Shown: in pieces, positions 8,995 to 44,284 of the stretch
How the letters are laid out: each line of letters opens with the position of its first letter
Numbering within the stretch: the stretch's first letter is position 1
Assembly (NCBI RefSeq): GCF_027587175.1
Contig: NZ_JAPCID010000015.1
Location: 62,001 to 126,000 of the forward strand
Origin: Solirubrobacter deserti
GTDB taxonomy: Bacteria; Actinomycetota; Thermoleophilia; Solirubrobacterales; Solirubrobacteraceae
Direction: 5' to 3'
DNA: 64,000 nucleotides
Made by a program: the position numbers and the translations under genes
The notes under the pieces: model-generated
The model's database searches: none
Seen by the model: the letters and a program-made list of their open reading frames with translations, nothing else
Told to the model about the DNA's origin: nothing

Positions 8995-9285
8995 GTGTCC
9001 AAGTGGCAAGGCGAACACGGAACGCGGTCAAGCCTGGCTGGCCTGCGCGAAGCGGACGACGTCGATCAGACGCTCCAGAACCTGCTCCGCGCGCTGACCC
9101 TGAACCTTGAACTTCGCGCACGCTACCGCGTGTTCGAGTTCGAGGCGACGCAGGACGGCCATGCGGAGACCGCCCGGCTCTTCCACGAGCTCCGCGAGTC
9201 GGCAGGCGAGCAGATCGCCGGCCTGATGACCGGGCTGCGCGATCGCCTGGGCCCGGACGCAGCGTCCACTGAGGGAATTGCATGA
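8995..9285 (+). CDS. Small protein of unknown function, possibly ferritin/rubrerythrin-like half domain
   Basis: A 96-residue, predicted mostly helical protein. Residues about 33-85 (NLELRARYRVFEFEA, ETARLFHELRESAGEQ) resemble one helical pair of ferritin-like/rubrerythrin proteins, where Glu-x-x-x-Arg-Tyr and a second Glu-x-x-x-x-Glu-Gln helix bind a metal. The match is by eye and weak, and the second helix lacks the usual histidine. It starts at GTG 8995, and its TGA at 9283-9285 lies 20 bp before the WbpA-like gene, so it is probably the first gene of that transcript. A function is not claimed. Confidence 0.55.
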   Translation: MSKWQGEHGTRSSLAGLREADDVDQTLQNLLRALTLNLELRARYRVFEFEATQDGHAETARLFHELRESAGEQIAGLMTGLRDRLGPDAASTEGIA

Positions 9286-9305
9286 GTCACCGTCAAGGAG
9301 GAAGC

Positions 9306-10607
9306 ATGACCATCGGCATCGTTGGGCTCGGCTACGTCGGCCTTCCACTGGCCGTCGCGTTCGCCGAGGCCGGCGAGCGAGTGATCGGCATCGACACGAG
9401 CGTGGCCAAGGTCGCCTCGATCCGGCGCGGAGAGTCCTATATCGAGGACATCCCGTCGGAGCAGCTCGCCGCCGTCCGCCCGCAGCTGGAGGCCACCACG
9501 CGCACCTCGCGCCTGGCGCTCGCCGACGCGATCATCATCGCCGTCCCGACCCCGCTGACCGCGAACCGCGAGCCGGATCTCGGCCCGCTGCTCGCCGCCG
9601 CCCAGTCCGTCTCGGACGTGCTGCAGGCCGGCCAGCTCGTCGTCCTCGAGTCCACGACGTACCCGGGCACCACGCGTGAGCGCTTGCTGCCGATCCTGGA
9701 GGAAACGGGCCTGCAGGCCGGCGTCGACTTCCACCTCGCCTTCTCGCCCGAGCGCGTCGATCCGGGCAACGAGACGTTCAGCCTGGAGAACACGCCGAAG
9801 ATCATCGGCGGCCTCACGCCCGCGTGCGCCGCGAAGGCCGAAGGCCTGTACGGCAAGGTCTGCGAGTCCATCGTTCCCGTGACCACCCCTGAGGTGGCCG
9901 AGATGGCGAAGCTGCTCGAGAACATCTTCCGCAGCGTGAACATCGCGCTCGTCAACGAGCTCGGAATGCTGGCCGAGCGCATGGGCGTCGACATCTACGA
10001 GGTCATCGACGCGGCCGCGACCAAGCCGTTCGGCTACATGCGCTTCGAGCCGGGCCCCGGCATGGGCGGCCACTGCCTCCCCGTGGACCCGTTCTATCTG
10101 TCCTGGAAGGCGCGTGAGTACGACTTCTCGACCGAGTTCATCGAGCTCGCCGGCAAGGTCAACCAAAACATGCCGTACGTCTGCGTCGAACGCGCCGAGC
10201 GCAAGCTCAACGACCTCGGCAAGGCCGTCAAGGGCTCCAAGATCGCGATCCTCGGCGTCGCGTATAAGCCGGCCGTCGGCGACACGCGCGAGTCGCCGGC
10301 GCTGAAGATCATCGAGCGCCTGCAGTCGCTCGGCGGCAACGTCGTCTACCACGACGAGTTCGTCCCCGAGTTGGCGAAGTTCGGCCTCACCAACACGTCC
10401 CTCGAGGACACGCTCGACGGCGCTGACATCGCGCTGATTGTCACCGCTCACCCGGGCATCGATCACATGGCCGTCGCGGCGAAGGTGCCGACGGTCGACT
10501 ATCGCGGGGTCACCCGCACCACGCGGGCGGCAGCGAGGCCGCCCATGAACATGGCCGTCCTGCCTCAGCGGGACGCCGACATCGAGCCCACGGAGGTGGC
10601 GGCATGA
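9306..10607 (+). CDS. wbpA: UDP-N-acetylglucosamine 6-dehydrogenase-type nucleotide sugar dehydrogenase
   Basis: Oxidises the C6 hydroxyl of a UDP-HexNAc to a uronic acid with two NAD+. The N-terminal Rossmann fold starts IGIVGLGYVGLPLAVAFA. The middle domain has EMAKLLENIFRSVNIALVNE, and the catalytic cysteine is Cys257 in GMGGHCLPVDPFYL. The C-terminal domain contains ILGVAYKPAVGDTRESPAL. At 433 residues it fits the WbpA/WecC/TviB group rather than UDP-glucose dehydrogenases. ATG 9306 is chosen because AAGGAGG (9295-9301) precedes it; in-frame ATG 9282 lacks such a site. With the WbpD-, WbpE- and WbpB-like genes it suits a diacetamido-uronic acid pathway. Confidence 0.88.
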   Translation: MTIGIVGLGYVGLPLAVAFAEAGERVIGIDTSVAKVASIRRGESYIEDIPSEQLAAVRPQLEATTRTSRLALADAIIIAVPTPLTANREPDLGPLLAAAQSVSDVLQAGQLVVLESTTYPGTTRERLLPILEETGLQAGVDFHLAFSPERVDPGNETFSLENTPKIIGGLTPACAAKAEGLYGKVCESIVPVTTPEVAEMAKLLENIFRSVNIALVNELGMLAERMGVDIYEVIDAAATKPFGYMRFEPGPGMGGHCLPVDPFYLSWKAREYDFSTEFIELAGKVNQNMPYVCVERAERKLNDLGKAVKGSKIAILGVAYKPAVGDTRESPALKIIERLQSLGGNVVYHDEFVPELAKFGLTNTSLEDTLDGADIALIVTAHPGIDHMAVAAKVPTVDYRGVTRTTRAAARPPMNMAVLPQRDADIEPTEVAA

Positions 10608-19645: not shown

Positions 19646-20815
19646 TTAGACGGCGACGAGCTCCGCGTTCACACCGAAGCGGTGGAGGTCGGCGCCGATC
19701 TCCTCCAGGTAGATGGGGTTCATGGCCACGACGAGATCCGGCTGCTCGGTGCGCAGGCGCTCCGGCGAACTGACCTCGTGCCCGGTGCCCGCCATGAACT
19801 TGTCCTGCTTGAACGGGTTGACGTCCACGACGAAGTCGACCTCGGCCGAGAGGCCGAGCGTCGTGAGGAACGCGACGCCCTTGGAGCCGCCACCCCACAG
19901 CACGGTCCTGCGGCCGTCAGCACGGGCGCTGCGCACGCGGTCCTGCCACGCCGTGCGCGTGGCCTCGAAGTCGCGCACGAACGCCGCCACGTCGGCGGCC
20001 ACGGCCTCCGGCGTCTCCTCCAGCGCCAGCGGCGCGTTGGGCGCGCCCGTGGCCGGACGGCCCTCGATGAGGATGTATTGATCGTCGTAGTCGAGCTCGA
20101 GGTCGAGCACGTCGAGCCCCGCCTTGCGGTACAGCCGGGCCAGCGACCCGGGCGTGAAGTACGAGCAGTGCTCGTAGTAGATGTCCCAGAACGCGCACTC
20201 GCGCAGCACGCGGCCGACGTCGGGCAGCTCGAACAACACGGCCGTGTCGGGGCGCCCTTCGAGCGAGCGCGTGATGATGCTGACGAAGTCGAGCACCGGC
20301 CCGATGTGCTCGAGCGTGTGACGGCACACGACCGCGTCGCCCGTCAATGCGCCGTGACGCTCGGAGTAGTGCTCCTTGATGAACGAGATGCGGTCGGCGA
20401 GCGCCGGGTCCAGCCGCTCGTCGAGCAGCGCCGGGTCCACGCCGACGGCGTGGCCGGCGCCGGCCTCGATCATGTCGACGAGGAACTCGCCCTTGCCGGA
20501 GCCGATCTCCAGGACGCCCTTACCTTCGAGTCCGTAACGCTCCACCCAGCGCCGGGCGAGCTCCTTCGAGAACGCGTTGAACGTCGGCGAGAAGCCCTGG
20601 CTGGCCTCGTTGCCGATGCCGTAGTCCTGCAGCGCGGCGTCGTAGAGCGTGTTCGTGATGAATCCGCACGCCGCGCAGAACCCGAGCCGCAGATCGCCGG
20701 TCGGGAACGACAGCGCCTCCTCGCGGGAATTCACGAGGCGGACGCTGTGGACCGGGATGCCGCGTTTCTCGTAAAAGTGCTCGAGCTGCTGGGCGCCACA
20801 CGCCGGGCAGCTCAC
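19646..20815 (-). CDS. SAM-dependent C-methyltransferase family protein (MT1)
   Basis: 389 residues. An N-terminal zinc-ribbon-like pair (CPACG, CAACGF) is followed by the class I SAM fold with VLEIGSGKGEFL and AVVCRHTLEHI, then a C-terminal Methyltransf_14-like domain with TVLWGGGSKGVAFL and VVDVNPFKQDKF. This three-part layout is that of NDP-sugar C-methyltransferases. It is closely related to MT3 at 25.0 kb and more distantly to MT2 next door. The GTG at 20815 overlaps the MT2 stop (GTGA). It is the last gene of the five-gene operon from 24.9 kb. The acceptor is probably a keto-sugar nucleotide (inference). Confidence 0.8.
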   Translation of the reverse strand: MSCPACGAQQLEHFYEKRGIPVHSVRLVNSREEALSFPTGDLRLGFCAACGFITNTLYDAALQDYGIGNEASQGFSPTFNAFSKELARRWVERYGLEGKGVLEIGSGKGEFLVDMIEAGAGHAVGVDPALLDERLDPALADRISFIKEHYSERHGALTGDAVVCRHTLEHIGPVLDFVSIITRSLEGRPDTAVLFELPDVGRVLRECAFWDIYYEHCSYFTPGSLARLYRKAGLDVLDLELDYDDQYILIEGRPATGAPNAPLALEETPEAVAADVAAFVRDFEATRTAWQDRVRSARADGRRTVLWGGGSKGVAFLTTLGLSAEVDFVVDVNPFKQDKFMAGTGHEVSSPERLRTEQPDLVVAMNPIYLEEIGADLHRFGVNAELVAV

Positions 20816-22083
20816 AGGATCTGCGGCTCCGGCACCGGGATGATGAACCGGCCGCCGCGCTCGAGGTACTCGGCCTGCTGGCGCATGACCTCGTCGCGGT
20901 AGTTCCAGGCCAGCAGCAGCACGTAGTCGGGCTGATCCTCGAGCAACTTCTCGACCGGATGGATCGGCTGGTGTATGCCCGGCATGTGCTTGCCGTGCTT
21001 GTGCACGTTGCGGTCGACCACGTAGTCGATGAACTCGCCGTCGACGCCGGTGAAGTTCAACAGCGTGGACGCCTTCGCGGCCGCGCCGTAGCCGACGATC
21101 GACTTGCCCTCGGCGCGCAGGCCGGCCAGCAGCTCGCGCAAGCCCTTGCGGATGCCCGTGACGCGCTCGCCGAAGCGCTCGTAGTACTCGAAGCTCGTCA
21201 GCCCCTGCTCGCGCTCGGCGGCGAGGAAGCCGCGCGCGGACTCCTGCACGTCCTCACGGGCGCCGATGATCCAGCGCAGCGTGCCGCCCTGCAGCGTCGG
21301 GAAGTGCTCGACGGCGTTCAGGAACAGCCCGTGGCGGCGCATCAGCGCGTCCACCGCGGTGCACGAGAAGTAGCAGAAGTGCTCGTGGTAGATCGTGTCG
21401 AACTCGCAGTGGTCGATCAGATCCTTGACGTAGGTGTTCTCGATCGTCGCCACGCCGTCCTCGGCGAGCAGGATGCTCAGGCCCTCGGCGAACGAGTTGA
21501 GCGTCGGCGTGTGCGCCATCACGTTGTTGGCGATGATCACGTCGGCACGCTTGCCCTCGGCCACCAGCCGGCGGGCGCAGTCGGCGTCGAAGAACTCCTG
21601 GCGCGTGGGCACGCCCTCGGCGATCGCGGCCGCGGCCTGCGGCGGACCCGGCTCGATGCCGAGCGCCGGGATGCCGTGCTCGACGAAGTTCTTGAGCATG
21701 TACCCGTCGTTGGAGGCGATCTCCACGACGAGGCTGCCCGCGCCGAGGCCACGCGTCTGGATCAGGTTCAGCGCGTGCTCGCGGCAGTGCTTGAGCAGGC
21801 CGGCCGAGAACGACGAGAAGTAGAGGTTGTTCTCGACGAACAGCGCCTCCGGCGACACGTCCTGGCGGATCTGCACGAGCGAGCACTCGCGGCAGAACGT
21901 GACGTCCATGGGGAACCGCGCCTCGGGACCGTCGAGGTCGGCCGTGGCGAGGAGCGCGTCCGGCAGCGGCAGCTCGCCCAGGTCGAGGAAGTCGACGAGC
22001 GGGCCGGAGCCGCAGCCCCGACAGCGCTCGACGACGACGAAGTCCGTGCGCGCCTGTTCCGACGACGGGGCGGGACTAGGCAA
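20812..22083 (-). CDS. NDP-hexose C-methyltransferase (TylCIII-like, MT2)
   Basis: 423 residues with an N-terminal zinc-binding domain (CRGCGSGPLVDFLDLGELPL and a second CREC), a SAM fold (VVEIASNDGYMLKNF, GIEPGPPQAAAAIAEG), then NNVMAHTPTLNSF, YHEHFCYFS and a C-terminal domain with VGYGAAAKASTLL. These are the signatures of sugar 3-C-methyltransferases such as TylCIII. The TTG at 22083 is chosen because it has GGAGG 6 nt upstream and overlaps the epimerase gene by 8 bp; residues encoded further upstream are epimerase shadow. Likely substrate: a 4-keto-6-deoxy CDP-sugar made by the neighbouring enzymes. Confidence 0.85.
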   Translation of the reverse strand: MPSPAPSSEQARTDFVVVERCRGCGSGPLVDFLDLGELPLPDALLATADLDGPEARFPMDVTFCRECSLVQIRQDVSPEALFVENNLYFSSFSAGLLKHCREHALNLIQTRGLGAGSLVVEIASNDGYMLKNFVEHGIPALGIEPGPPQAAAAIAEGVPTRQEFFDADCARRLVAEGKRADVIIANNVMAHTPTLNSFAEGLSILLAEDGVATIENTYVKDLIDHCEFDTIYHEHFCYFSCTAVDALMRRHGLFLNAVEHFPTLQGGTLRWIIGAREDVQESARGFLAAEREQGLTSFEYYERFGERVTGIRKGLRELLAGLRAEGKSIVGYGAAAKASTLLNFTGVDGEFIDYVVDRNVHKHGKHMPGIHQPIHPVEKLLEDQPDYVLLLAWNYRDEVMRQQAEYLERGGRFIIPVPEPQIL

Positions 22084-23116
22084 CGGAGGCCTCCAGACGG
22101 CGGAGGCTGTCGTCCAGGACGCCCTCCTCCTGCAGCTCGCGGACGTGCTTGATGCGCATGAAGCGGCGTGACAGGAAGTCGTCGAGCTCGAGCCCGTTGG
22201 CAACGTAGGCCGCGTACAGCTCCTCGACCGACTTGCGGACCGTCCACACCGGCTGGAAGGCCGGCAGGGTCTCCATGATCTTGTCGCAGTTGACGCGGTA
22301 GTTGCGGATGTCCGGAGACGCGCCGTCCGCGAACGTGACCGTGCTGCCGGGCACGACCTCGCCGACGATCGTCGCGACGTCGCGAATCTTGTAGTTCTCC
22401 TCGGTGCGGCCGACGTTGAACGGCTCGTTGTGCACCAGCTCGCGCGGCGCCTCGAGGATCGCCACGAAGGCGCGGCTGATGTCCTCGATGTGCACGAGCG
22501 GGCGCCAGGAGGAACCGTCGCTCTTGAGCAGCACCTGGCCCGTCGTGACCGCGTAGCCCGTGAGGTTGTTGACCACCAGGTCGCCGCGCAGGCGGGCCGA
22601 GAGGCCGTAAGCCGTGGCGTTGCGCAGGTAGGTCGGGCTGAAGTCGTCGTCGGCCAGCTCGCGCAGGTCGTTCTCGACCAGCAGCTTGGACTCGCCGTAG
22701 GGCGTGACCGGGTTGAAGCTCGCGCTCTCGTCGAGGATGTCGTCGCCTGCGGCGCCGTAGAGGCTGCACGAGGACGAGAACAGGAAGCGCTCGACGCCCG
22801 CCTCCTTGGCCAGCTTGGCCAGGCGGGTGGACGCGCGGTGGTTGATCGAGTACGTCGCGTCCGGGTTCAGGTCGCCGACGGGATCGTTGGAGATGGCCGC
22901 CAGGTGGATGACGGCGTCGAAGCCCTCGAGGTCGCCGAGCTCGACGTCGCGGACGTCCTTGCGCAGCGACGGCACATCCGGGACGTCCGGCCCGAAGGTG
23001 CACGTCTCATAGAGGTAGTTGTCGAGGCCCACGACCTCGTGGCCCGCCTGCTGCAGCAGAGGCAGCAGCGAGCAGCCGATGTAGCCGTTGTGGCCGGTGA
23101 CGAGTACGCGCATCAT
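22076..23116 (-). CDS. NAD-dependent epimerase/dehydratase (extended SDR)
   Basis: 346 residues. N-terminal dinucleotide motif VLVTGHNGYIGCSLLPLL, HLAAISNDP, an active-site FSSSCSLYG followed by PYGESK (Tyr-x-x-x-Lys), and RNATAYGLSARLRGDLV. It belongs to the SDR group often found beside cytidylyltransferases and C-methyltransferases in surface-sugar loci. A dedicated CDP-glucose 4,6-dehydratase (RfbG) is not visible elsewhere in the window, so this enzyme may fill that step or a later epimerisation. The ATG at 23116 overlaps the rfbF stop (ATGA) and an ATG at 23113 follows directly. Confidence 0.82.
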   Translation of the reverse strand: MMRVLVTGHNGYIGCSLLPLLQQAGHEVVGLDNYLYETCTFGPDVPDVPSLRKDVRDVELGDLEGFDAVIHLAAISNDPVGDLNPDATYSINHRASTRLAKLAKEAGVERFLFSSSCSLYGAAGDDILDESASFNPVTPYGESKLLVENDLRELADDDFSPTYLRNATAYGLSARLRGDLVVNNLTGYAVTTGQVLLKSDGSSWRPLVHIEDISRAFVAILEAPRELVHNEPFNVGRTEENYKIRDVATIVGEVVPGSTVTFADGASPDIRNYRVNCDKIMETLPAFQPVWTVRKSVEELYAAYVANGLELDDFLSRRFMRIKHVRELQEEGVLDDSLRRLEASVA

Positions 23117-23889
23117 TCCCAGGTCCTCCACGGAGCCCCGTCGTTCCAGAGTTCCTCCAGCAGCTTCTTGTCGCGGAGGGTGTCCATGCACTGCCAAAAG
23201 TCTTCGTGCTTGTAGGCCATCAGCTGGCCTTCGCGGGCGAGCCGCTCGAGCGGCTCGCGCTCCCACATCGTGTCGTCGCCCGGGACGTAGTCGAACACCT
23301 CGGGCTCGAGCACGAAGAAGGCGCCGTTGATCCAGCCTTCGCCGATCTGCGGCTTCTCGTTGAAGTCGGAGATGACGTTGCCGTCGAGCTCCAGGTGGCC
23401 GAAGCGGGCCGGCGGCCGGACCGCCGTCATCGTGGCCAGCTTGCCGTGCGAGCGGTGGAACTCGAGCAGCTTGTCCAGGTCGACGTTGGAGACGCCGTCG
23501 CCCCACGTGCACATGAACGTCTCGTTGCCGATGGTCGGCGCGAGGCGCTTGATGCGACCGCCGGTGGCCGTGCCCTGGCCTGTGTCCACGAGCGAGACGG
23601 TCCAGTCGTCGATCTCCGCGCCGTGGCCGTTGCGGCGCTCGATGTGCCCGTTCGCGAGGCCAACGGTCAGATCGCCGTACAGCGACGCGTAGTCGACCAT
23701 GTAGCGCTTGATGACCTCGCCCTTGTACCCGAGGGCGATCGCGAAGTCCGTGTACCCGTAGTGGGCGTAGTGCTTCATGATGTGCCAGAGGATCGGGCGG
23801 CCGCCGATTTCGACCATCGGCTTGGGCTTGATCTCGGTCTCCTCCGAGATGCGGCTGCCGACGCCGCCGGCGAGGATCGCGACCTTCAT
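23113..23889 (-). CDS. rfbF: Glucose-1-phosphate cytidylyltransferase
   Basis: Makes CDP-glucose from CTP and glucose-1-phosphate, the entry to CDP-6-deoxy sugars. The 258-residue product begins MKVAILAGGVGSRISEET and contains KPKPMVEIGGRPILWHIMKH, MCTWGDGVSNVDLDKLL and INGAFFVLEPEVFDYV, all diagnostic for RfbF rather than RmlA. ATG 23889 overlaps the GT2 stop (ATGA). The gene is in the middle of the minus-strand operon 24941 to 19646. Confidence 0.93.
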   Translation of the reverse strand: MKVAILAGGVGSRISEETEIKPKPMVEIGGRPILWHIMKHYAHYGYTDFAIALGYKGEVIKRYMVDYASLYGDLTVGLANGHIERRNGHGAEIDDWTVSLVDTGQGTATGGRIKRLAPTIGNETFMCTWGDGVSNVDLDKLLEFHRSHGKLATMTAVRPPARFGHLELDGNVISDFNEKPQIGEGWINGAFFVLEPEVFDYVPGDDTMWEREPLERLAREGQLMAYKHEDFWQCMDTLRDKKLLEELWNDGAPWRTWE

Positions 23890-24941
23890 GATGCGGGAGT
23901 CACCTCTGTTGGGGTTGGGCGCCGCAGCGCCCGCTTGATTGCAGTGGTCGCGCGCGCGCCGAGCAGCGAGCCCGCGAGCAGCCGCCACGCCGTCGGCTCG
24001 AAGACGACGGCCGCATCGCGCCGCGCGCAGGCGCGGAGCACACGGGCGGTGGGCGCCGGCCGGCGCGCGGGGAACGTGGCGTGCGCCGCGTGCTCGATGA
24101 GCTCGCGGCGGAACGCGCGGTGCGCCTCGCGCCGCAGGGCGGGGACGCCGGTGAGGCGGTCACCGTGCTCGTCCAGGAAGCGCAGCTTGACTTCCAGGAA
24201 CTTCTCGATCCGTTCGGTGCCTTGGATGTAGCCGCCGTCGGTCACCTGCGCCGCACCAGCGCTGTAGGCACCGTCGTGGATGCGGTAGCGCGCGATCGTC
24301 TGCTTGCGGAACACCACGTCCCAGTCGAGCGCGATCCGCATGAAGTGCCCCAGATCGGTAACGGGGTAGTCGCGCTCGTCGAGCAGCACGCTGCGCACGG
24401 CCTCCGTGCGCAGCAGGACCGTGGTCGCGTGTACCCGGTAGGACATCTGCATCGAGCGGCGGATGAAGTCGGTCCCACGCTCGACGGTGTTGCTGTCGAG
24501 GCCGCTCATGTGGTGCTCCGCGGCGATCACCTCGCCGGCTTCGTCGACCACATCGACTTGGGCGTGGATCATCGCGGCGCGCGGGTTGGCCTCGAGCGCC
24601 GCGACGGTCACCGCCAGAGCGTCTGGAGTGAGCCGGTCGTCGTCCGGGACCATGTACAGGTAGTCGGCCTCGACGTTGGCGAACCAGCCGTTGTAGTGCT
24701 CGTTCAGGCCGCAGTTGGTCGCTCGTCGCACGTACGTCAGGCGCGGATCGTCGAAGCGAGCGACGACCGCGGCCGTGTCATCCGTCGACGCGTTGTCGGA
24801 GACGACCAGGCGGAAGTCCTTGTACGTCTGCGCGAGGATGCTCTCGATTGCCCCGCCGAGCCAGCGAGCCCGGTTGTAGGTCGGGATCACGACGGCCACA
24901 CGAGGCGCCGGAGCGTTCTGCGCTGTGGGGTTCTTGACCAT
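23886..24941 (-). CDS. Family 2 glycosyltransferase
   Basis: 351 residues with a GT-A fold: VAVVIPTYNRARWLGGAIES, VVSDNASTDDT and the metal-binding PDDD in YLYMVPDDDRLTPDAL (about residue 100). No transmembrane helix is evident, so it is probably a cytoplasmic or membrane-associated repeat-unit transferase. It leads a five-gene operon with rfbF, the SDR, MT2 and MT1, so it likely adds the sugar those enzymes make. ATG 24941 has a TAGCAT box 8 nt upstream, pointing to a leaderless or nearly leaderless mRNA. Confidence 0.85.
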   Translation of the reverse strand: MVKNPTAQNAPAPRVAVVIPTYNRARWLGGAIESILAQTYKDFRLVVSDNASTDDTAAVVARFDDPRLTYVRRATNCGLNEHYNGWFANVEADYLYMVPDDDRLTPDALAVTVAALEANPRAAMIHAQVDVVDEAGEVIAAEHHMSGLDSNTVERGTDFIRRSMQMSYRVHATTVLLRTEAVRSVLLDERDYPVTDLGHFMRIALDWDVVFRKQTIARYRIHDGAYSAGAAQVTDGGYIQGTERIEKFLEVKLRFLDEHGDRLTGVPALRREAHRAFRRELIEHAAHATFPARRPAPTARVLRACARRDAAVVFEPTAWRLLAGSLLGARATTAIKRALRRPTPTEVTPAS

Positions 24942-27343: not shown

Positions 27344-30157
27344 ATGTGCGGCATCTGCGGAGTGGTACAGGTGGGCGGGGAGGCTCGCGAGGTCATCTCG
27401 CCCGAGGTCCTCAACCAGATGACGGACGCGATGACCCATCGCGGACCGAATGATCGCGGCATCATGCAGGCGCCCGGCGTCGCCTTCGGCGCGCGCCGCC
27501 TCAGCATCGTCGACGTCGAGGCCGGCCACCAGCCGTTCCCGAACGAGACCGGCGACATCTGGGGGATGCAGAACGGCGAGCTCTACAACCACGCCGAGAT
27601 CACGCGCCAGCTCAAGGCCGAGGGCCACGTCCTTCGGACACGCTGCGACACCGAGATCCTGCCGCACCTGTACGAGCGCTACGGGACGCACGTACCCGAG
27701 CAGCTTCGGGGCAAGTTCGCCATCGCGATCTGGGACGGAACCCGCCGCCGCGCCGTGATCGCGCGCGACCGCCTCGGCGTCAAGCCGCTGTACTGGGCTC
27801 AGGTCGGCGACCGCGTCATCTTCGCGTCTGAGCTCAAGAGCCTGCTCGCGTCCGGGTTGATCGGTCCGGACCTCGACTACGAGGCGATCGACAGCTACCT
27901 CACCTTCGGCTTCTTCTCCGGTCCGCGCACGCCTCTGGCCGGCGTTTCGAAGCTGATGCCCGGGCACCGGCTCGTGATCGACGAGTCCGGCGTGAGCGTC
28001 GAGCGGTATTGGGCCTATCCCCGCCCCGAGGCCCAGCCCGGCCTGACGGTCGACGACTGGGGCGAGGGTCTGATCGCCGAGCTCGAGGACGCCGTCAAGT
28101 CCCGGCTGATGGCCGATGTGCCGCTCGGCGCGATGCTGAGCGGCGGCCTGGATTCGAGCGTGATAGTCGCGCTGATGGCGCGCAACATGAGCGAGCCTGT
28201 CAAGACGTTCTCGGTCGGCTTCGCCGAGGACGGCAAGAAGAACGAGCTCTCGGACGCCAAGCTCGTGGCGGACTCGATCGGGGCTGAGCACCACGAGCTG
28301 CAGCTGTCGGTATCGGACGCCGCGGTCGATCTCGAGACGCTTTCCTGGCAGATCGACGAGCCGCTCGCCGATCTCTCGTCACTCGGCTTCTCGGCCCTGT
28401 CGGAGCTCGCGGCCAAGCACGTGACCGTCACGCTCTCCGGCCAGGGCGCCGACGAGCTCCTCGGCGGCTACAACAAGCATCAGGCCGCTGCCGCCGCGGC
28501 CGCGTTCAGCCGGCTTCCCGCCCCCGCTCGCGCCGCCATCACGTCCGCGGCCAGGCGCGGCCCCGGCAAGGTGCAGCGCATGGCCCGAACGCTCGAGGCC
28601 CCCGGCTCCGTCGACCGCCTCCTGGCGATGAGCGGCAAGCTCGACGACGACCTGCGCGGCCGTCTGCTGCGGGGCCCGCTTGCCGAGTTGGACGGGGACG
28701 CGGCTCGCCGCGTCGTGGCCGAGCGGTTGGGGGATATCGCCGACGAGCCGCTTGCCGCAACGCTGTACATCGACGGCCAGCTGGCACTCGTGGACGACAT
28801 GCTCCACTACTTCGACCGCGCCTCGATGGCGCACTCGCTCGAGGTGCGCGTGCCGTTCCTCGATCACAAGATGGTCGAGTACTGCGCCACGATCCCGACC
28901 GCCATGAAGGTGCGGCGCGTCACGACGACCAAGCACGTGCTCAAGCATGCGGCGCGGGGCATCATCCCGGATCGGATCATCGACAAGCAGAAGATCGGGT
29001 TCTTCGCCGGCTCCGTCGACCGCTGGTTCGCGGCCCAGGCCGGCGGCGGGATCAGCGACTTCCTGCTCACTCCCTCCCCGCGTTACGCCGAGTTCCTGGA
29101 CCGCGGCACGGTCGCCTCGCTGGTGCGCCGTCACGCCGACGGGACCGACACACGGAACGGCCGCCTGCTGCTCGCGATCGTCATGCTCGAGGTGTGGCTG
29201 TCGTCCACGCTGCCGCGGGCGATCCCGTCGGCCGGCGGCGCCCCCCTGACCCTCGACACCAAGCCCGTCCCGTCTGAGCCCGAGCTGTCGTACGCCGTCG
29301 TGACTCCCGTCCGCGATGAGGCCGAGAACCTCCCGCGGCTCGCCGCGAGCCTCGCCTCACAGACGGTCACGCCCACGCAGTGGGTCGTCGTCGATACCGG
29401 CTCCACAGACGACACGTGCTCGTTGACGCGGACGCTGGCCACCGAGCACCCGTGGATCACGCTCGTCGAGGCCCCCGAGATCGCGCGCACCGTCGAGCGG
29501 GGCGCGCCGATCGTACGCGGCTTCGAGCGCGGCGTCGCGGCCCTTGCCGGCCGCGACGAGGTGGTGGTCAAGGTGGACGCCGACGTCTCATTCGAGCCCG
29601 ATCATTTCCAGCGCCTGCTGTCCGCGTTCGCCGAGGATCGCTCGCTGGGGATCGCCGGCGGCAACGCTGTCGAGCTCGAGGACGGTCAATGGGTCGCGCG
29701 GTACAACACGGGCTCGAGCGTCTGGGGCGCCGACCGTGCGTACCGCCGGGAGTGTCTGGACGACGTCATGCCGCTCGAGCGCAGCATGGGCTGGGACGGG
29801 ATCGACGAGCTGAAGGCGCATCTGCGCGGCTGGCACACGCGGACGCTCGTGAACTTGCCGTTCAAGCATCACCGCGGTGAGGGCGAGCGCGACGGCCACC
29901 GGCTGAAGCCGTGGACGGCGCGCGGTCGCGCCGCCCACTACATGGGCTACCGCGGCTGGTTCCTCACCTTGCGCGCGCTGCATCACACCCGCTCCGAGCC
30001 CGCCGCTCTCGCGATGATCTGGGGCTACGCGGCAGCGGCGCTGAAGCGCCAGCCCGTGTGCTCGGATGCCGAGGTGCGCGCGGAGCTGCGTCGATCCCAG
30101 AGCGTGCGCAGCCTGAGAGCTCGCCGGCGCCGGGCGATCGGGGCGGCCACGTCGTGA
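27344..30157 (+). CDS. asnB: Asparagine synthetase (glutamine-hydrolysing) fused to a family 2 glycosyltransferase
   Basis: 937 residues in one frame. Residues 1 to about 630 are class II AsnB: MCGICGVVQVGG with the Ntn nucleophile Cys2, MQNGELYNH, RCDTEILPHLYERYG and the ATP loop MLSGGLDSSVIVAL near residue 265. A short Pro-rich linker follows, then from about residue 646 a GT2 domain: YAVVTPVRDEAENLPRLAA, VVVDTGSTDDT and VVKVDADVSFEPDHF as the metal site. No stop or frameshift separates them. AsnB-type enzymes in O-antigen loci (for example WbpS) amidate uronic acids, so coupling amidation to sugar transfer is plausible. It is the first gene of a four-gene operon joined by 4-bp overlaps. 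Confidence 0.9.
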   Translation: MCGICGVVQVGGEAREVISPEVLNQMTDAMTHRGPNDRGIMQAPGVAFGARRLSIVDVEAGHQPFPNETGDIWGMQNGELYNHAEITRQLKAEGHVLRTRCDTEILPHLYERYGTHVPEQLRGKFAIAIWDGTRRRAVIARDRLGVKPLYWAQVGDRVIFASELKSLLASGLIGPDLDYEAIDSYLTFGFFSGPRTPLAGVSKLMPGHRLVIDESGVSVERYWAYPRPEAQPGLTVDDWGEGLIAELEDAVKSRLMADVPLGAMLSGGLDSSVIVALMARNMSEPVKTFSVGFAEDGKKNELSDAKLVADSIGAEHHELQLSVSDAAVDLETLSWQIDEPLADLSSLGFSALSELAAKHVTVTLSGQGADELLGGYNKHQAAAAAAAFSRLPAPARAAITSAARRGPGKVQRMARTLEAPGSVDRLLAMSGKLDDDLRGRLLRGPLAELDGDAARRVVAERLGDIADEPLAATLYIDGQLALVDDMLHYFDRASMAHSLEVRVPFLDHKMVEYCATIPTAMKVRRVTTTKHVLKHAARGIIPDRIIDKQKIGFFAGSVDRWFAAQAGGGISDFLLTPSPRYAEFLDRGTVASLVRRHADGTDTRNGRLLLAIVMLEVWLSSTLPRAIPSAGGAPLTLDTKPVPSEPELSYAVVTPVRDEAENLPRLAASLASQTVTPTQWVVVDTGSTDDTCSLTRTLATEHPWITLVEAPEIARTVERGAPIVRGFERGVAALAGRDEVVVKVDADVSFEPDHFQRLLSAFAEDRSLGIAGGNAVELEDGQWVARYNTGSSVWGADRAYRRECLDDVMPLERSMGWDGIDELKAHLRGWHTRTLVNLPFKHHRGEGERDGHRLKPWTARGRAAHYMGYRGWFLTLRALHHTRSEPAALAMIWGYAAAALKRQPVCSDAEVRAELRRSQSVRSLRARRRRAIGAATS

Positions 30158-30639
30158 GCCACGGCACCGAGCACGTCGACGTCCTGCTCGTCTGCACCGC
30201 CGGCGGTCACCTCCTGCAGCTGTGGTCGCTCCGACAGGCGTGGAGCGAGTACGACCACGCCTGGGTCGTCGGCAGCCACGGCGGCGGCGACGTGGAGTCG
30301 TTGCTCGAAGGTGAGCGGCTCTTCTATGCGCACTCACCCGCTGCGCGTAGCCTCAAGAACGCCGTGCGCAACGTGCTGCTGGCGCGGCGCCTGATCAAGC
30401 GGCTACGCCCGCAGGTCCTCGTGACCACCGGCGCAGCCGTGGCGGTGCCGTTCGCGTGGGTCGCACGGGCGCACGGTGTGCGGGTCGCCTACGTGGAGAC
30501 GCTCGCGCGCGCCGAGCGGCCGTCGCTCAGTTGTCGACTCGCTCGTCCGATCGCCGATCGCGTGTACGTGCAGTGGCCTGAGCTGGTTGACGCGGTCCCC
30601 GGCGCACGCTACGCCGGCACGGTGTTCGGAGACCGATGA
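30154..30639 (+). CDS. Alg14/PssD-like glycosyltransferase subunit
   Basis: 161 residues. The N-terminal VLLVCTAGGHLLQLWSL and a central VLVTTGAAVAVPFAWVAR, then VAYVETLARAERPSLS, match the Alg14/PssD/EpsE family, the membrane-tethering and acceptor-binding half of a split GT28-type transferase. The GTG at 30154 overlaps the asnB-GT2 stop (GTGA), and the stop overlaps the Alg13-like partner (ATGA). Together they should transfer a sugar, often GlcNAc, GlcA or Gal, to the lipid-linked repeat. Confidence 0.82.
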   Translation: MSHGTEHVDVLLVCTAGGHLLQLWSLRQAWSEYDHAWVVGSHGGGDVESLLEGERLFYAHSPAARSLKNAVRNVLLARRLIKRLRPQVLVTTGAAVAVPFAWVARAHGVRVAYVETLARAERPSLSCRLARPIADRVYVQWPELVDAVPGARYAGTVFGDR

Positions 30640-31133
30640 TCCTCGTCGTCACCGGCGCCAGCCAGTTCCCGTTCGATCGCCTCCTGCGGGCGGTCGAGAC
30701 GCTCTCCGGCGACGAGCGCGTCGTCGCGCAGTACGGCTGCTCGGCCGTGCAGCCACGCAACGCCGAGTGCGTGGACTTCGTCCCCATGGCGCGCTTGGCC
30801 GAGCTGGTCCGGGAGGCTCGCGTCGTCATCACGCACGCCGGGGTCGGGTCGATCCTGCTGTGCCTGAGCAACGGCCGGCGCCCCGTTGTCGTCCCGCGGT
30901 TCAAGCGCTTCGACGAGACCGTCGACGACCATCAGGTCGAGTCGTCGCGGCGGTTCGCCGGCGCCGGCCTCGTCACGCTGGTCGAGGATCCGAGCCGCCT
31001 GGCGGAGGCCATTCCCACCCTCGCGGTGGGCGACGAGTTCGCCGTACCGACCTTCGGCGAAGGGTCGCTCGTTCGCGACCTTCGCGGTTACTTCCAACAG
31101 ACCATCGAGACCAGGAGTCGTCCGCGGCCATGA
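30636..31133 (+). CDS. Alg13/PssE-like glycosyltransferase catalytic subunit
   Basis: 165 residues of the GT28 C-terminal type: MILVVTGASQFPFDRLL, then VVITHAGVGSILLCLSNGRRPVVVPR, the nucleotide-sugar-binding signature, and DDHQVESSRRFAGAGLV. It depends on the Alg14-like protein encoded just upstream, with which it shares a 4-bp overlap. The next GT2 gene overlaps its stop by 4 bp. Confidence 0.85.
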   Translation: MILVVTGASQFPFDRLLRAVETLSGDERVVAQYGCSAVQPRNAECVDFVPMARLAELVREARVVITHAGVGSILLCLSNGRRPVVVPRFKRFDETVDDHQVESSRRFAGAGLVTLVEDPSRLAEAIPTLAVGDEFAVPTFGEGSLVRDLRGYFQQTIETRSRPRP

Positions 31134-31951
31134 TCGCCGTCGTCGTGCTCACGCATGAGCGCGCCCACCTGCTGAAGCTGTGCGTGGAAAACGTCCTCTC
31201 GCGCACGTCCGAGCTCACGACCGAGATCCTCGTGTGGGACAACGCGTCGACCGACGGTACGGTCGAGTACCTCGAGAGCCTCGACGATCCGCGCCTCCGC
31301 GTGGTCCGCCACGACAAGAACATCGGCGCGAACGCGTACGCCGAGGCCGTCAAGCTCACCAGCGCGCCGTACATCGTCGAGCTCGACGACGACATGATCG
31401 ACGCGCCGCACGAGTGGGATCGAACCCTGCTTGAGTCCTATGAGAAGCTGCCGCAGATCGGGTTCCTCGCGGCGAACCTCGTCAACAACCCGCACGACAC
31501 GGCGGCGCGGGTCATGTACGAGGAGCGTCCGCACGCATACCACACCGAGGTCATCAACGGGGTGCGGCTCAAGCGCGGACCGGTCGGCGGCGGCTGCGCG
31601 CTGACGTCGCGCGAACTGATGGAGCGCGCCGGCGGCTTTCGGCAAAATCCCGGCGAGGTCTTCTGGCTCGAGGACGCGGCGTACATCGAGGACATCGCGA
31701 AGCTCGGGTTCGAGGCGGCGTACCTCGAGGACACGCAGCTCAAGCACGCCGGCGGCGCCTTCTACGCCAAGCCCACCCGCGAGAAGCACGCGTACTGGAA
31801 GGCCTACTGGGAGCGCGAGATCCGCAAGAACCGCGTCAAGCGGGCATTGCTCGCCGTGCCCGGCGTGCGGGGCCTGAACGAGCGCCACGGCTGGTTCCGG
31901 CTCGCCGACATCCCGGACTTCCCTCCGGGTTGGCGCAAGTATCCGGGCTGA
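31130..31951 (+). CDS. Family 2 glycosyltransferase
   Basis: 273 residues with a GT-A fold: IAVVVLTHERAHLLKLCVEN, LVWDNASTDGTVEYL and the metal-binding DDD in YIVELDDDMIDAPHEW (about residue 88). A long catalytic C-terminal half includes GPVGGGCALTSRELMERAGG and EDAAYIEDIAKLG. No membrane segment. Last gene of the asnB-GT2, Alg14-like, Alg13-like, GT2 operon. The frame upstream of ATG 31130 is shadow; ATGA overlap fixes the start. Confidence 0.85.
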   Translation: MIAVVVLTHERAHLLKLCVENVLSRTSELTTEILVWDNASTDGTVEYLESLDDPRLRVVRHDKNIGANAYAEAVKLTSAPYIVELDDDMIDAPHEWDRTLLESYEKLPQIGFLAANLVNNPHDTAARVMYEERPHAYHTEVINGVRLKRGPVGGGCALTSRELMERAGGFRQNPGEVFWLEDAAYIEDIAKLGFEAAYLEDTQLKHAGGAFYAKPTREKHAYWKAYWEREIRKNRVKRALLAVPGVRGLNERHGWFRLADIPDFPPGWRKYPG

Positions 31952-31995
31952 CGCGCCTTTATGAGAGGTCCCGGGCGAGTTGTGCCGGGGCCTAA

Positions 31996-32035
31996 ACCGT
32001 CGGCCAGTGAAGTCGCTCAAGATCCGCGATACGGT
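31996..32035 (+). promoter_or_regulatory. Promoter of protein B with TCGGCCAGT element
   Basis: ACCGTCGGCCAGT (31996-32008) is followed after about 21 nt by TACGGT (32030-32035), which is 7 nt before ATG 32043, so the mRNA is probably leaderless. The element resembles ACGTTCGGCCAGT upstream of the secreted protein at 14.6 kb, with one base missing. Confidence 0.5.
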
Positions 32036-32042
32036 CGCGGTG

Positions 32043-35000
32043 ATGAGGGGGTGGATGTGCCTGCACGGCAGCACGCCGGCGCGGCTCGGCGGGTGGCTGG
32101 TCGCGCTTGTCGCGGCGTCCGCCTTGTTCGCCGCCTCGGCACAGGCCGCACCGTCGGCGCCTGACGCCTTGCCGCAGACGTGGGGTGTGCAGGTGGACGC
32201 CGCCCTGGCGCGTGCGCTCGATCGCCCCGTCCTGCGGCAGCTGCGCGCCGTGGGCATGACCTTGGTGGCCGCGCCCGGTCTGGACGCGGCGACCGGGCGC
32301 CGGCTCACGAGCCTGGCGCAGCGCGAGAAGCTGCCGCTGATTCAGCCACTCGGCGGCGGTGCCGAGGCGTGCGTTCAGCACAAATTGGCCGAGCCGGGCC
32401 ATCGGTGCGCGGTCGCCGCCGCCTCGCCCGCCGCGGCGCGAGCGCTCGCCGCCGGAGGCGACGCCGACCTCGTGGTGGTTTCCGCATCCACCGGCAGCGG
32501 TCTGAACGCCGGCGCGAGCCGTGTCATGGCGGTGGTGCCGCTGCGTGGCAGCGGCTATCGCGCCGCGACCTGGCGTCGCGAGATCAACGCCGCGCGGTCG
32601 GCCGACGGGCTTGATCTCGCCGTCCTCCCCACCGGCTCCGGTGCGCAAGCGGCATTGATCCGGTACCTCAAGCAGTTGCGGCCTCTCGCGCGCGGCGATC
32701 GGTCGGCGCCGACCCGGCCCGCAACGCCACTCGTCGTCCCTTCGGGCGGCGGCGGGCTCGCGGTCTCGTGGAGCGCGGTGAAGGACGCCGTCGCATACGC
32801 GGTCTACCTCGACGGTCGCCGGACGTCAACGGTGGCGTCTCCGGGCGTTCAGCTGCCCAGCCTGGCGTGCACGCCGCACCTCGTGGAGGTCGACGCCGTC
32901 GACAAGGCGGGCAACCGGTCGGCGAAGGCGTTCGCGACCGCGACGCCGAGCGGGTGCGGAATCGCGGCCCCACCGAGCCCGATCAGCATCTTGCCCGGGC
33001 CACCGGCGCCCGGGATGCCCACGCCGACGCCCACCGCGACGGCCGCGCCAACCCCCGAGACGACGATCACGAGCGGGCCGAGCGGGCCGACGAACCGCGC
33101 GGACGCCTCGTTCACCTTCACCGCGACAGTGCCCGGCGCCACGTTCGAGTGCCGGCTGGACACACCCGCCGGAGCGGGTACGTTCAGCCCGTGCACCTCC
33201 CCGCGCAGCTACGCGACGAACGTCGACGGCGACTACACGTTCGTGGTCCGCGCGGTAGACGCCGCCGGCAACCCCGACCCCACGCCGGCGACCCGCACCT
33301 TCACCGTCCAGACCACACCCTCGGACACCCAGCCGCCGACCACGCCGGGCCAGCTCGGGTATGGGACTCGGAGTCAGACGTCCGTGCAGATCGAGTGGGA
33401 GGCCTCGACCGACAGCGTGGGAGTCGCGGGGTACCGCGTGTTCCGGGACAGCACGCTCGTCGGCACGACCCAGGCGCTGACCTTCACGTATTCGCTGCTT
33501 ACCTGCGGGACGTCGTACTCGCTCGGCGTCGAGGCGCTCGACGGGGCCGGCAACGTCTCGCAGCGGGCGACGATCGTGGTCGGGACCGACGACTGCCCTG
33601 ACACCTCGCCGCCCACCGCCCCGGCCCGGCTACGGGCGCTGTCCGTCGGCGAGACGTCGATCCGCCTCGCCTGGGAGCCGTCGATCGACGACATTGGCGT
33701 GACTGGGTACTACGTGTATCGCGGAGGCTCGTTGGTCGACGCCACCACCGGCACCGAGATCGAGATGTCGAATCTGCAATGCGGCGCGCCGGTCGAGGTC
33801 GGGATCGTCGCGCGGGACGCCGCCGAGAACTTGTCCCAGCGCAACACCGTGACGGTCTCGACGGCAGAGTGCTCGGACAAGACGCCGCCCTCGTCCCCGG
33901 CGGGACTGAAGCTCATAGAGGCGACACCGGAACTGGTGTCGATCGCGTGGGACCCGTCGACCGACGACGTCGGCGTCACCGGCTACCGGGTCTACATCGA
34001 CGGCCGGCTCACCGACACGGTGGATGGGACGTCGGCGATCCTGCCGGTCCCTGCCTGCGACACGGCGTACCAGGTCGCGGTCGAGGCGCGCGACGCGGCC
34101 GGCAACGGCTCGGTCAAGGCGACGCTCGCGGTGCGCTCCGCGATCTGCCCGGACACCTCGCCCCCGACGCCGCCGCGAAGCCTGCGCGCGACCGCCAGCA
34201 CGGAAACGACCGTGACGCTGGTGTGGGACGCCGGCACGGACGACCGCGGTGTCGCCGAGTACCGGCTCCATCGCAACGGCGTGCGGGTCACGAGCACATC
34301 CGGTACGAGTGCGACGGTGACCGGGCTCAAATGCGGGACCACGTACGAGGTCGGCGTCGTATCCGCCGACGCGGCCGGTAACACGTCCGCATCCACGGTC
34401 GTCTCAGCGTCCACGAGCAACTGCACGTCGCCCGAGCCGGAGCCGGCCACGCTGTTCGTCTCACCCACCGGATCGGACCAGAACGAGTGCACGCGCGCCG
34501 CCCCGTGTGCCGGCTTCGACCGCGCGTTCCGCATCTCCAAGCCCGGCGACGTCGTCGAGGTTGCGTCGGGGCGCTACGGGTCGCAGATCATCAAGCAGGC
34601 GCCAGGCCACGAGAACGGGCCCGACATACTCTTTCGCCCCGCCAAGGGCGCACGAGTCGTGCTCGACGAGCTCGCGTTCGGCTCCGACGAGACCGGCCCG
34701 GACCACATCGCGGTGCGAGGCATGGAGATGAGCGTCAAGGCCACCGAACCGGGCGTCGGTAACCAGGTGGGCATCTACGTCGGACCGGGCTCGACCTTCA
34801 TCACGCTCGACGACATGGACGCCGGCAGCGTGCACGCGTGGCTCGTCGACCATCTGACGGTCCGCGGCGGCGACTACGGCCCTTGCCACGTCGTCGCGCC
34901 GATCACGCAGACCTGCGGAAACTCCAAGCTCGATCTCGCGACCAACGTGACCATCGACGGCGCGACGTTCCATGACTACCGCTTCGACGAGACATGCTTC

Positions 35001-35663
35001 GAAGCGGGCTTCGAGTGCCACTGGGAGTGCATGTACATCAACGCCGGCCACAACATCTCGATCGTCAACTCGAAGTTCCGCCAGTGCGCGATCTTCGACA
35101 TCTTCGCCACGATCTCTGGCCCGCAGGCGGGAGAGATGGGGCATCGTGACCTGACCATAGAGAACAACTGGCTGGCGGCGCCCTGGGCCGAAACGCCGAC
35201 GGGCGGAACACCCACAAGAGCCTCCGCCGTCGCGCTCTCGTGGTGTCAGAACGGGCCAGAAGTCGCCTTCGACGGCGTCCGTGTGGCGTTCAACTCGTTC
35301 GCCGCCGACACCACGCTCGAACTCGACACCAATCCCGAGTGCACCTGGAAGGACGTCGACGTCGTGGGCAATCTGATGATGTGGGACGGGTGCCATCCGG
35401 GCGACGGCTGGACGTACGCCTACAACGTCTGGTCCGACAGCCGCCGCCGCGGCACGTGCGCGGCCACCGACAGCACCATCGGCTCAGACGCCTTCCCGTA
35501 CGCAGACGCCAGTACCGACGACGAACTCGACTTCCACCTCGACCAGCAGAGCGTCGCTGACGACCATGTCCCGGCGGTGGCGGGCTGCCCTGCGAAGGAC
35601 ATCGACGGACAACCCCGACCGGCGGCCGGTAGTCGCTGCGACGCGGGCGCCGACGAGCGTTGA
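32043..35663 (+). CDS. Secreted FN3/beta-helix surface protein with WGVxVD N-terminal domain (protein B)
   Basis: 1206 residues. A signal peptide (about 1-38, LVALVAASALFAASAQA) is followed by an unrecognised 190-residue domain shared with proteins C and D (TWGVQVDAAL, RAVGMTLVAAPG, LDLAVLPTGSGAQAAL). Then an FN3-like domain, a Pro/Thr linker, a chitobiase/PKD-like domain, and four FN3 domains, each opening D(T/K)xPPxxP. The C-terminal right-handed beta-helix (about 800-1206) starts ATLFVSPTGSDQNECTRAAP and ends DIDGQPRPAAGSRCDAGADER. The beta-helix is the most divergent of the four. ATG 32043 is set by the TACGGT box. Probably exported and surface-retained; lyase or binding activity is inference. 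Confidence 0.83.
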   Translation: MRGWMCLHGSTPARLGGWLVALVAASALFAASAQAAPSAPDALPQTWGVQVDAALARALDRPVLRQLRAVGMTLVAAPGLDAATGRRLTSLAQREKLPLIQPLGGGAEACVQHKLAEPGHRCAVAAASPAAARALAAGGDADLVVVSASTGSGLNAGASRVMAVVPLRGSGYRAATWRREINAARSADGLDLAVLPTGSGAQAALIRYLKQLRPLARGDRSAPTRPATPLVVPSGGGGLAVSWSAVKDAVAYAVYLDGRRTSTVASPGVQLPSLACTPHLVEVDAVDKAGNRSAKAFATATPSGCGIAAPPSPISILPGPPAPGMPTPTPTATAAPTPETTITSGPSGPTNRADASFTFTATVPGATFECRLDTPAGAGTFSPCTSPRSYATNVDGDYTFVVRAVDAAGNPDPTPATRTFTVQTTPSDTQPPTTPGQLGYGTRSQTSVQIEWEASTDSVGVAGYRVFRDSTLVGTTQALTFTYSLLTCGTSYSLGVEALDGAGNVSQRATIVVGTDDCPDTSPPTAPARLRALSVGETSIRLAWEPSIDDIGVTGYYVYRGGSLVDATTGTEIEMSNLQCGAPVEVGIVARDAAENLSQRNTVTVSTAECSDKTPPSSPAGLKLIEATPELVSIAWDPSTDDVGVTGYRVYIDGRLTDTVDGTSAILPVPACDTAYQVAVEARDAAGNGSVKATLAVRSAICPDTSPPTPPRSLRATASTETTVTLVWDAGTDDRGVAEYRLHRNGVRVTSTSGTSATVTGLKCGTTYEVGVVSADAAGNTSASTVVSASTSNCTSPEPEPATLFVSPTGSDQNECTRAAPCAGFDRAFRISKPGDVVEVASGRYGSQIIKQAPGHENGPDILFRPAKGARVVLDELAFGSDETGPDHIAVRGMEMSVKATEPGVGNQVGIYVGPGSTFITLDDMDAGSVHAWLVDHLTVRGGDYGPCHVVAPITQTCGNSKLDLATNVTIDGATFHDYRFDETCFEAGFECHWECMYINAGHNISIVNSKFRQCAIFDIFATISGPQAGEMGHRDLTIENNWLAAPWAETPTGGTPTRASAVALSWCQNGPEVAFDGVRVAFNSFAADTTLELDTNPECTWKDVDVVGNLMMWDGCHPGDGWTYAYNVWSDSRRRGTCAATDSTIGSDAFPYADASTDDELDFHLDQQSVADDHVPAVAGCPAKDIDGQPRPAAGSRCDAGADER

Positions 35664-44239: not shown

Positions 44240-44271
44240 GGCGTTTCTTCTCGGCTCCCTTTGAGAATGGC

Positions 44272-44282
44272 TTGACCGAACC
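44272..44282 (-). promoter_or_regulatory. GTTCGG-type element upstream of protein D
   Basis: GGTTCGGTCAA on the minus strand, 33 nt before ATG 44239, the same core as upstream of the secreted protein at 14.6 kb. No clear -10 box is visible between it and the start. Confidence 0.4.
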
Positions 44283-44284
44283 AC

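What the first reader, a model, noticed from the sequence alone, without database searches (positions are those of the whole stretch)
27344..30157. Asparagine synthetase fused in frame to a family 2 glycosyltransferase
A complete class II AsnB (Cys2 nucleophile, SGGLDSS loop) continues without a stop into a GT2 domain with NTP-sugar and DxD-type motifs. In O-antigen clusters, AsnB-like proteins amidate uronic acids. This window also encodes enzymes for an N-acetylated uronic acid. A single protein that amidates a uronic acid and transfers it, or transfers and then amidates, would be a new kind of polymer-assembly enzyme. It is followed by an Alg14/Alg13 pair and a GT2 with 4-bp overlaps, so it is clearly part of the polymer machinery.
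Basis: partly seen in the sequence, partly recalled or inferred. Interest (0 to 1): 0.68.

Follow-up and report, generated by a model that had tools for sequence, protein, structure and literature searches.

The report
Fused sugar amidotransferase and glycosyltransferase
In one soil bacterium (Solirubrobacter) a gene for an enzyme that probably turns a sugar acid into a sugar amide has merged, apparently by a single extra base, with its usual neighbour, a sugar-attaching enzyme; the pairing is conserved in relatives as separate genes, so the merger is a clue that the two work on the same cell-surface polymer.

Summary
Window 27344-30157 (+) is one open 937-codon gene: a complete AsnB-type amidotransferase (1-~625), a ~20-residue disordered linker, and a complete GT2 (~648-937). 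A second assembly of the species is base-identical here. In every other genome examined the halves are separate genes. In the co-directional relatives inspected the GT2 lies in the -1 frame, usually with a 4-bp NTGA overlap. The window keeps that TGA (29247-29249), preceded by a C6 run, so one extra base explains the fusion. The pairing is not accidental: the AsnB half belongs to a well-supported clade linked to this GT2. In 399 class genomes, 11 of 12 carrying that AsnB also carry the GT2 (p=3e-13, phylogeny not corrected); the 12th has a GT2 start cut by a contig end. The clade replaces the aspartate-site Glu of asparagine synthetase with Gln (E364Q is inactive in the human enzyme), and the genome keeps another AsnB with Glu. 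Best reading: a WbpS-like amidotransferase making a sugar amide in an exopolysaccharide repeat, tethered to its partner GT2. Substrate and order of steps are inferred; the link to the N-acetylated uronic acid pathway is only partial. New variant of a known kind; moderately interesting.

The parts
27344..30157 (+). Fused gene: AsnB-type amidotransferase + GT2, 937 aa
   Evidence: identical in G206
27347..27349 (+). Cys2 codon, glutaminase nucleophile
   Evidence: invariant in clade alignment A2
28139..28159 (+). SGGLDSS pyrophosphate-binding loop (residues 266-272)
28436..28456 (+). SGQGADE (365-371): Gln367 where human asparagine synthetase has catalytic Glu364; mark of the GT2-linked clade
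28991..28993 (+). Lys550, aligned with the essential Lys466 of human ASNS
   Evidence: alignment; invariant in A2; role from PMC6748925
29222..29284 (+). Linker, about residues 627-647, predicted disordered
   Evidence: pLDDT <50 at 627-645
29241..29249 (+). Scar of the gene junction: C6 run (29241-29246) followed by TGA (29247-29249) in another frame; one C fewer would end AsnB here with a CTGA overlap
   Evidence: separate-gene junctions in relatives
29285..30154 (+). GT2 domain (648-937): DTGSTD 684, DAD 745, GWDGIDE 816, HHR 842; GT-A fold plus C-terminal helices
30154..30639 (+). Alg14/PssD-like GT subunit, GTGA overlap with the fused gene
   Evidence: (PssD 99.8 bits, cut-off 110)
30636..31133 (+). 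Alg13/PssE-like GT subunit, ATGA overlap
   Evidence: (PssE 91 bits, cut-off 120)
31130..31951 (+). GT2 (GT2b), ATGA overlap; relatives at 52-53% in L161 and L224
44646..45542 (+). GT2e, a GT2 whose relatives directly flank AsnB in L174 and L192 (62-63%)
9282..10607 (+). UDP-sugar 6-dehydrogenase (WbpA-like): source of a uronic acid
   Evidence: TIGR03026 411 bits
11098..12954 (+). Hexapeptide acetyltransferase (WbpD-like) and DegT aminotransferase (WbpE-like)

Best explanation
The gene encodes a real two-domain protein of an exopolysaccharide assembly line. The N-terminal half is a glutamine-dependent amidotransferase of the AsnB superfamily: it hydrolyses Gln at Cys2, passes NH3 through the protein, and adenylates a carboxylate that is not aspartate, most likely C6 of a uronic acid in the polymer repeat (as nucleotide sugar or on the lipid carrier), giving a uronamide in the way WbpS does. 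The C-terminal half is a non-processive GT-A/GT2 transferase working on the same repeat unit at the membrane. The fusion arose by about one inserted base at the stop/start overlap of the ancestral asnB-GT2 gene pair and tethers the two enzymes by a flexible ~20-residue linker. Shown: the frame, intact domains and motifs, the conserved pairing and co-inheritance, the Gln substitution, the scar at the junction. Inferred: uronic acid as substrate, membrane location, tethering benefit. Unknown: whether amidation comes before or after transfer. Because the GT2 occurs without this AsnB but the AsnB was not found without the GT2, amidation is more likely an optional step on the GT2's donor or product.
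For: 937-aa ORF with both domains complete; same bases in second assembly; no ATG/GTG/TTG close to the junction that would give a separate GT2 its whole first strand, other than a GTG 17 codons upstream; confident two-domain model with disordered linker. Separate adjacent genes in relatives, GT2 in the -1 frame, with GTGA/ATGA overlaps in L021, L157, L161, L175 and near-contacts in L174, L192. AsnB half in a 100% SH-aLRT clade of 8, all GT2-adjacent, all SGQGADE. Among 399 genomes 11 of 12 with this AsnB have the GT2 versus 17 of 387 without (p=2.8e-13); the twelfth, G418, has a GT2 start directly after AsnB at a contig end. AsnB and GT2 trees show the same near pairs (L021 with L161; window with L174). 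Human ASNS E364Q is inactive (PMC6748925); own genome keeps another AsnB with Glu, TGEGADE. Precedent: WbpS makes uronamides in P. gingivalis, and H. pullorum WbpS behaves likewise (PMC7468200, PMC6025236). UDP-sugar dehydrogenase on the same contig within about 18 kb in G000, S. phytolaccae, G087 and G341.
Against: No experiment; the polymer is unknown. AsnB half scores 462 bits against the WbpS/XrtA model, cut-off 817, so it is not a close WbpS; it passes the general asparagine synthase model. WbpE-like gene detected in only 6 of 12 AsnB-clade genomes and no UDP-sugar dehydrogenase on the AsnB contig in G225, G408, G347 (small contigs) or near it in G239. The two assemblies with the fusion are nearly identical and may not be independent isolates. 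In G239 the AsnB and GT2 are 9 kb apart in one cluster. The residue at position 364 in characterised WbpS proteins was not checked here.
Confidence: 0.6

Rival explanations
1. The fusion is a sequencing or assembly error: a C5 run was read as C6, and the cell makes two proteins from a CTGA-overlapping gene pair like its relatives.
For: The C6 run sits exactly where relatives have the stop, and removing one C restores an NTGA overlap; co-directional relatives inspected have separate genes in that frame relation.
Against: Two assemblies agree base for base. Without the fusion the GT2 would need a CTG start, or a GTG 17 codons upstream without a well-spaced ribosome site, or lose part of its first strand.
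Confidence: 0.15
2. The AsnB half is an ordinary asparagine synthetase accidentally merged with an EPS gene.
For: Passes TIGR01536 asparagine synthase cut-off (445 versus 267 bits); complete glutaminase and ATP motifs.
Against: Clade-wide Gln at the position where E364Q inactivates human ASNS; beside the GT2 or in its cluster; another AsnB with Glu in the genome.
Confidence: 0.08
3. The amidotransferase acts on a carboxylate other than a sugar uronic acid (an amino-acid or lactyl substituent of the repeat), or joins an amine other than ammonia.
For: AsnB superfamily is chemically broad: closest solved structure is hydroxyamidotransferase TsnB9; AsnH amidates D-Asp in peptidoglycan (PMC3885529); half of the clade's genomes lack a detected WbpE-like gene.
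Against: Glutaminase half intact, so ammonia is the likely donor; all 11 genomes searched have UDP-sugar dehydrogenases, some in the same cluster; WbpS precedent in polysaccharide loci.
Confidence: 0.2

Closest known systems
WbpS / WbqG uronamide-forming amidotransferases (eps_aminotran_1, TIGR03108)
   Same: AsnB superfamily, polysaccharide loci, near uronic-acid genes; best NCBIfam match of the AsnB half; P. gingivalis WbpS acts with the Wbp pathway (PMC7468200)
   Different: Below the family cut-off (462 versus 817 bits); fused to a GT2, paired with a particular GT2 lineage, own clade with Gln367
Asparagine synthetase B (E. coli AsnB, human ASNS)
   Same: Same two-domain fold, Cys nucleophile, SGGLDSS, Lys550, Asp370, Glu371
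   Different: Glu364 equivalent is Gln; AS-B model not met (292 versus 499 bits)
asnB-GT2 neighbour pair of S. phytolaccae KCTC 29190 (L021/L060)
   Same: Orthologous halves (54% and 50%) in the same order
   Different: Two genes overlapping by GTGA
GT2 / GT-A transferases (WrtF fucosyltransferase, RmlT)
   Same: GT-A fold, DxD; nearest solved folds
   Different: TM-score 0.55-0.6 and 16-20% identity only; donor and acceptor unknown; attached amidotransferase

Membership tests
Class II glutamine amidotransferase / AsnB superfamily | N-terminal Cys after Met, GATase_7 and Asn_synthase domains, SGGxDS loop | tested here: met
Asparagine synthetase (function) | Glu at human position 364, required for aspartate chemistry | tested here: not met
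   Gln367 here and in all 8 clade members; E364Q inactive (PMC6748925)
Asparagine synthetase (function) | Score above TIGR01536 cut-off | tested here: met
   445 versus 267 bits; model is broad
WbpS / eps_aminotran_1 (TIGR03108) | Score above curated cut-off 816.9 | tested here: not met
   461.9 bits; so 'works like', not filed as a member
WbpS / eps_aminotran_1 (TIGR03108) | Makes a uronamide | not testable with these tools
   needs polymer chemistry or enzyme assay
WbpS / eps_aminotran_1 (TIGR03108) | Genomic company of uronic acid synthesis genes | tested here: inconclusive
   WbpE-like in 6/12; UDP-sugar dehydrogenase on the same contig in G000, G003, G087, G341
Glycosyltransferase family 2 | Glycos_transf_2 domain above cut-off, NTP-binding Asp, DxD, GT-A fold | tested here: met
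   38.6 versus 23.3 bits

The most novel reading that the evidence does not exclude
A single bifunctional enzyme that couples uronic acid amidation to glycosyl transfer, passing the activated or nascent sugar between its two sites so that only amidated repeat units are built; and a wider, undescribed AsnB clade (Gln at the catalytic Glu position) dedicated to one GT2 lineage.
Probability: 0.3. Interest if true: 0.6.

Novelty: new variant of a known kind. Interest (0 to 1): 0.4.

Why it matters
The fusion is 'Rosetta stone' evidence that an AsnB-like amidotransferase and a particular GT2 act on the same sugar. It turns a conserved but unexplained gene pair of Thermoleophilia exopolysaccharide clusters into a testable hypothesis, and could show whether amidation of uronic acids happens before or after glycosyl transfer. 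It also warns that genes annotated 'asparagine synthase' in such clusters may not make asparagine.

Tried and rejected
Scanned 232 order, 399 class and 397 phylum genomes and 80 loci from genome contigs for another fusion: none; long open frames in G023, G189 and G347 are chance high-GC frames or were separate genes on inspection. Tested obligate linkage to the Wbp (UDP-GlcNAc3NAcA) pathway: only partial. GGGTAGG motif seen upstream of homologues is not enriched in the window. Literature searches for an AsnB-GT fusion found none in the held library; this is not proof of absence. Position 364 in characterised WbpS/WbqG could not be checked because no sequence was at hand.

Full report
What is there. 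Window 27344-30157 (+) is one ORF of 937 codons. Pfam places GATase_7 at 51-169, Asn_synthase at 245-619 and Glycos_transf_2 at 652-776. AlphaFold2 gives mean pLDDT 90, with residues 627-645 below 50: two whole domains on a flexible linker. The GT2 alone models at pLDDT 94 as a GT-A fold with C-terminal helices. It opens a tight operon: the next three genes (Alg14/PssD-like, Alg13/PssE-like, GT2) overlap by 4 bp each.

Organism. The window is contig C31 of a 7.1 Mb genome. A second assembly of the same species, G206, is 99.994% identical over 47 kb and has the ORF base for base. Whether the two are independent isolates is not known.

Is the fusion real? In every other genome examined the halves are separate. 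In S. phytolaccae, asnB ends ...GTGTCCGCGTGA and the GT2 starts at that GTG. G225 and G408 have ATGA overlaps, G179 a GTGA overlap, G347 a TGATG contact, and G418 has its GT2 GTG a few bases after the asnB stop; in all, the GT2 is in the same -1 frame. In the window, the corresponding place reads GGCGCCCCCCTGACC: with one C fewer, AsnB would end at TGA 29247-29249 with a CTGA overlap. One inserted base thus explains the fusion, and the old stop is still visible out of frame. A homopolymer is also where sequencing errors arise, but two assemblies agree, and if unfused the GT2 would have no ATG, GTG or TTG start giving it its whole first strand near the junction, apart from a GTG 17 codons upstream without a well-spaced ribosome site. 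I give the error hypothesis 0.15.

Is the pairing meaningful? Yes. In a tree of 43 AsnB homologues the window sequence falls in a clade of eight (SH-aLRT 100), every one beside this GT2. In the same 399 genomes of the class, this AsnB clade (E<=1e-260) occurs in 12 and the GT2 in 28; 11 coincide (Fisher p=2.8e-13, not corrected for phylogeny). The twelfth, G418, has a GT2 start right after AsnB where the contig ends. AsnB and GT2 trees show the same near pairs, window with G347 and S. phytolaccae with G225. In G239 AsnB and GT2 are 9 kb apart, in one cluster with homologues of the window's Wzx, Wzy, GT2b, GT2c, GT2e, Alg13, Alg14 and initiating transferase. More distant AsnB homologues also lie near relatives of this GT2 in other phyla.

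What the AsnB half does. The glutaminase residues (Cys2, Arg52, Asn77-Gly78-Glu79, Asp102) and ATP residues (SGGLDSS, Lys550) are kept. At the aspartate pocket the clade has SGQGADE where human ASNS has SGEGSDE; human E364Q and E364A are inactive (PMC6748925). Other paralogues in the tree have Glu, Asp or Thr (and some neighbouring lineages Gln), and one state change separates Gln from the rest. The same genome has another AsnB with TGEGADE. So asparagine is unlikely to be the product. The nearest described function is that of WbpS/WbqG, amidating uronic acids (PMC7468200, PMC6025236), but the protein is far below that family's cut-off, so it is like WbpS, not filed as one.

Substrate. The window has WbpA-, WbpD-, WbpE- and WbpB-like genes, but WbpE-like was detected in only 6 of 12 genomes with this AsnB. 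A UDP-sugar dehydrogenase lies on the same contig in S. phytolaccae, G087, G341 and the window (95% identical in S. phytolaccae). I therefore favour 'some uronic acid', not specifically GlcNAc3NAcA. In H. pullorum the wbpS mutant still transfers the un-amidated acid, which shows that transfer need not wait for amidation.

Verdict. True observation, interpretation half right: a lineage-specific merger of a conserved enzyme pair, useful as functional evidence, not a categorically new enzyme class.

Noticed in passing
19646-24941 (-): A run of two C-methyltransferases (Methyltransf_13/14), an NAD epimerase/dehydratase, a glucose-1-phosphate cytidylyltransferase (TIGR02623 above cut-off) and a GT2: probably a branched C-methyl CDP-deoxysugar pathway.
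   Followed up: no
15825-19439 (-), 31980-35663 (+), 41234-44284 (-): Three very large proteins with Ig-like/fn3 domains lie inside the polysaccharide cluster; the DNA of the first and third shows 78-83% similar stretches.
   Followed up: no
9282-10607 and L225:11796-13118: The UDP-sugar dehydrogenase is 95% identical in S. phytolaccae while the inner cluster genes are about 50%, as if the core of the locus had been exchanged between conserved flanks.
   Followed up: no
L021, L022, L023, L025 upstream of AsnB or GT2: GGGTAGG occurs shortly upstream of the first gene in four related loci, but in the window it is no more frequent than chance and not at this promoter.
   Followed up: partly
L162, L176: Two different AsnB paralogues (one SGQGADE, one NGDGGDE) sit in the same polysaccharide cluster, suggesting two distinct amidations.
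   Followed up: no
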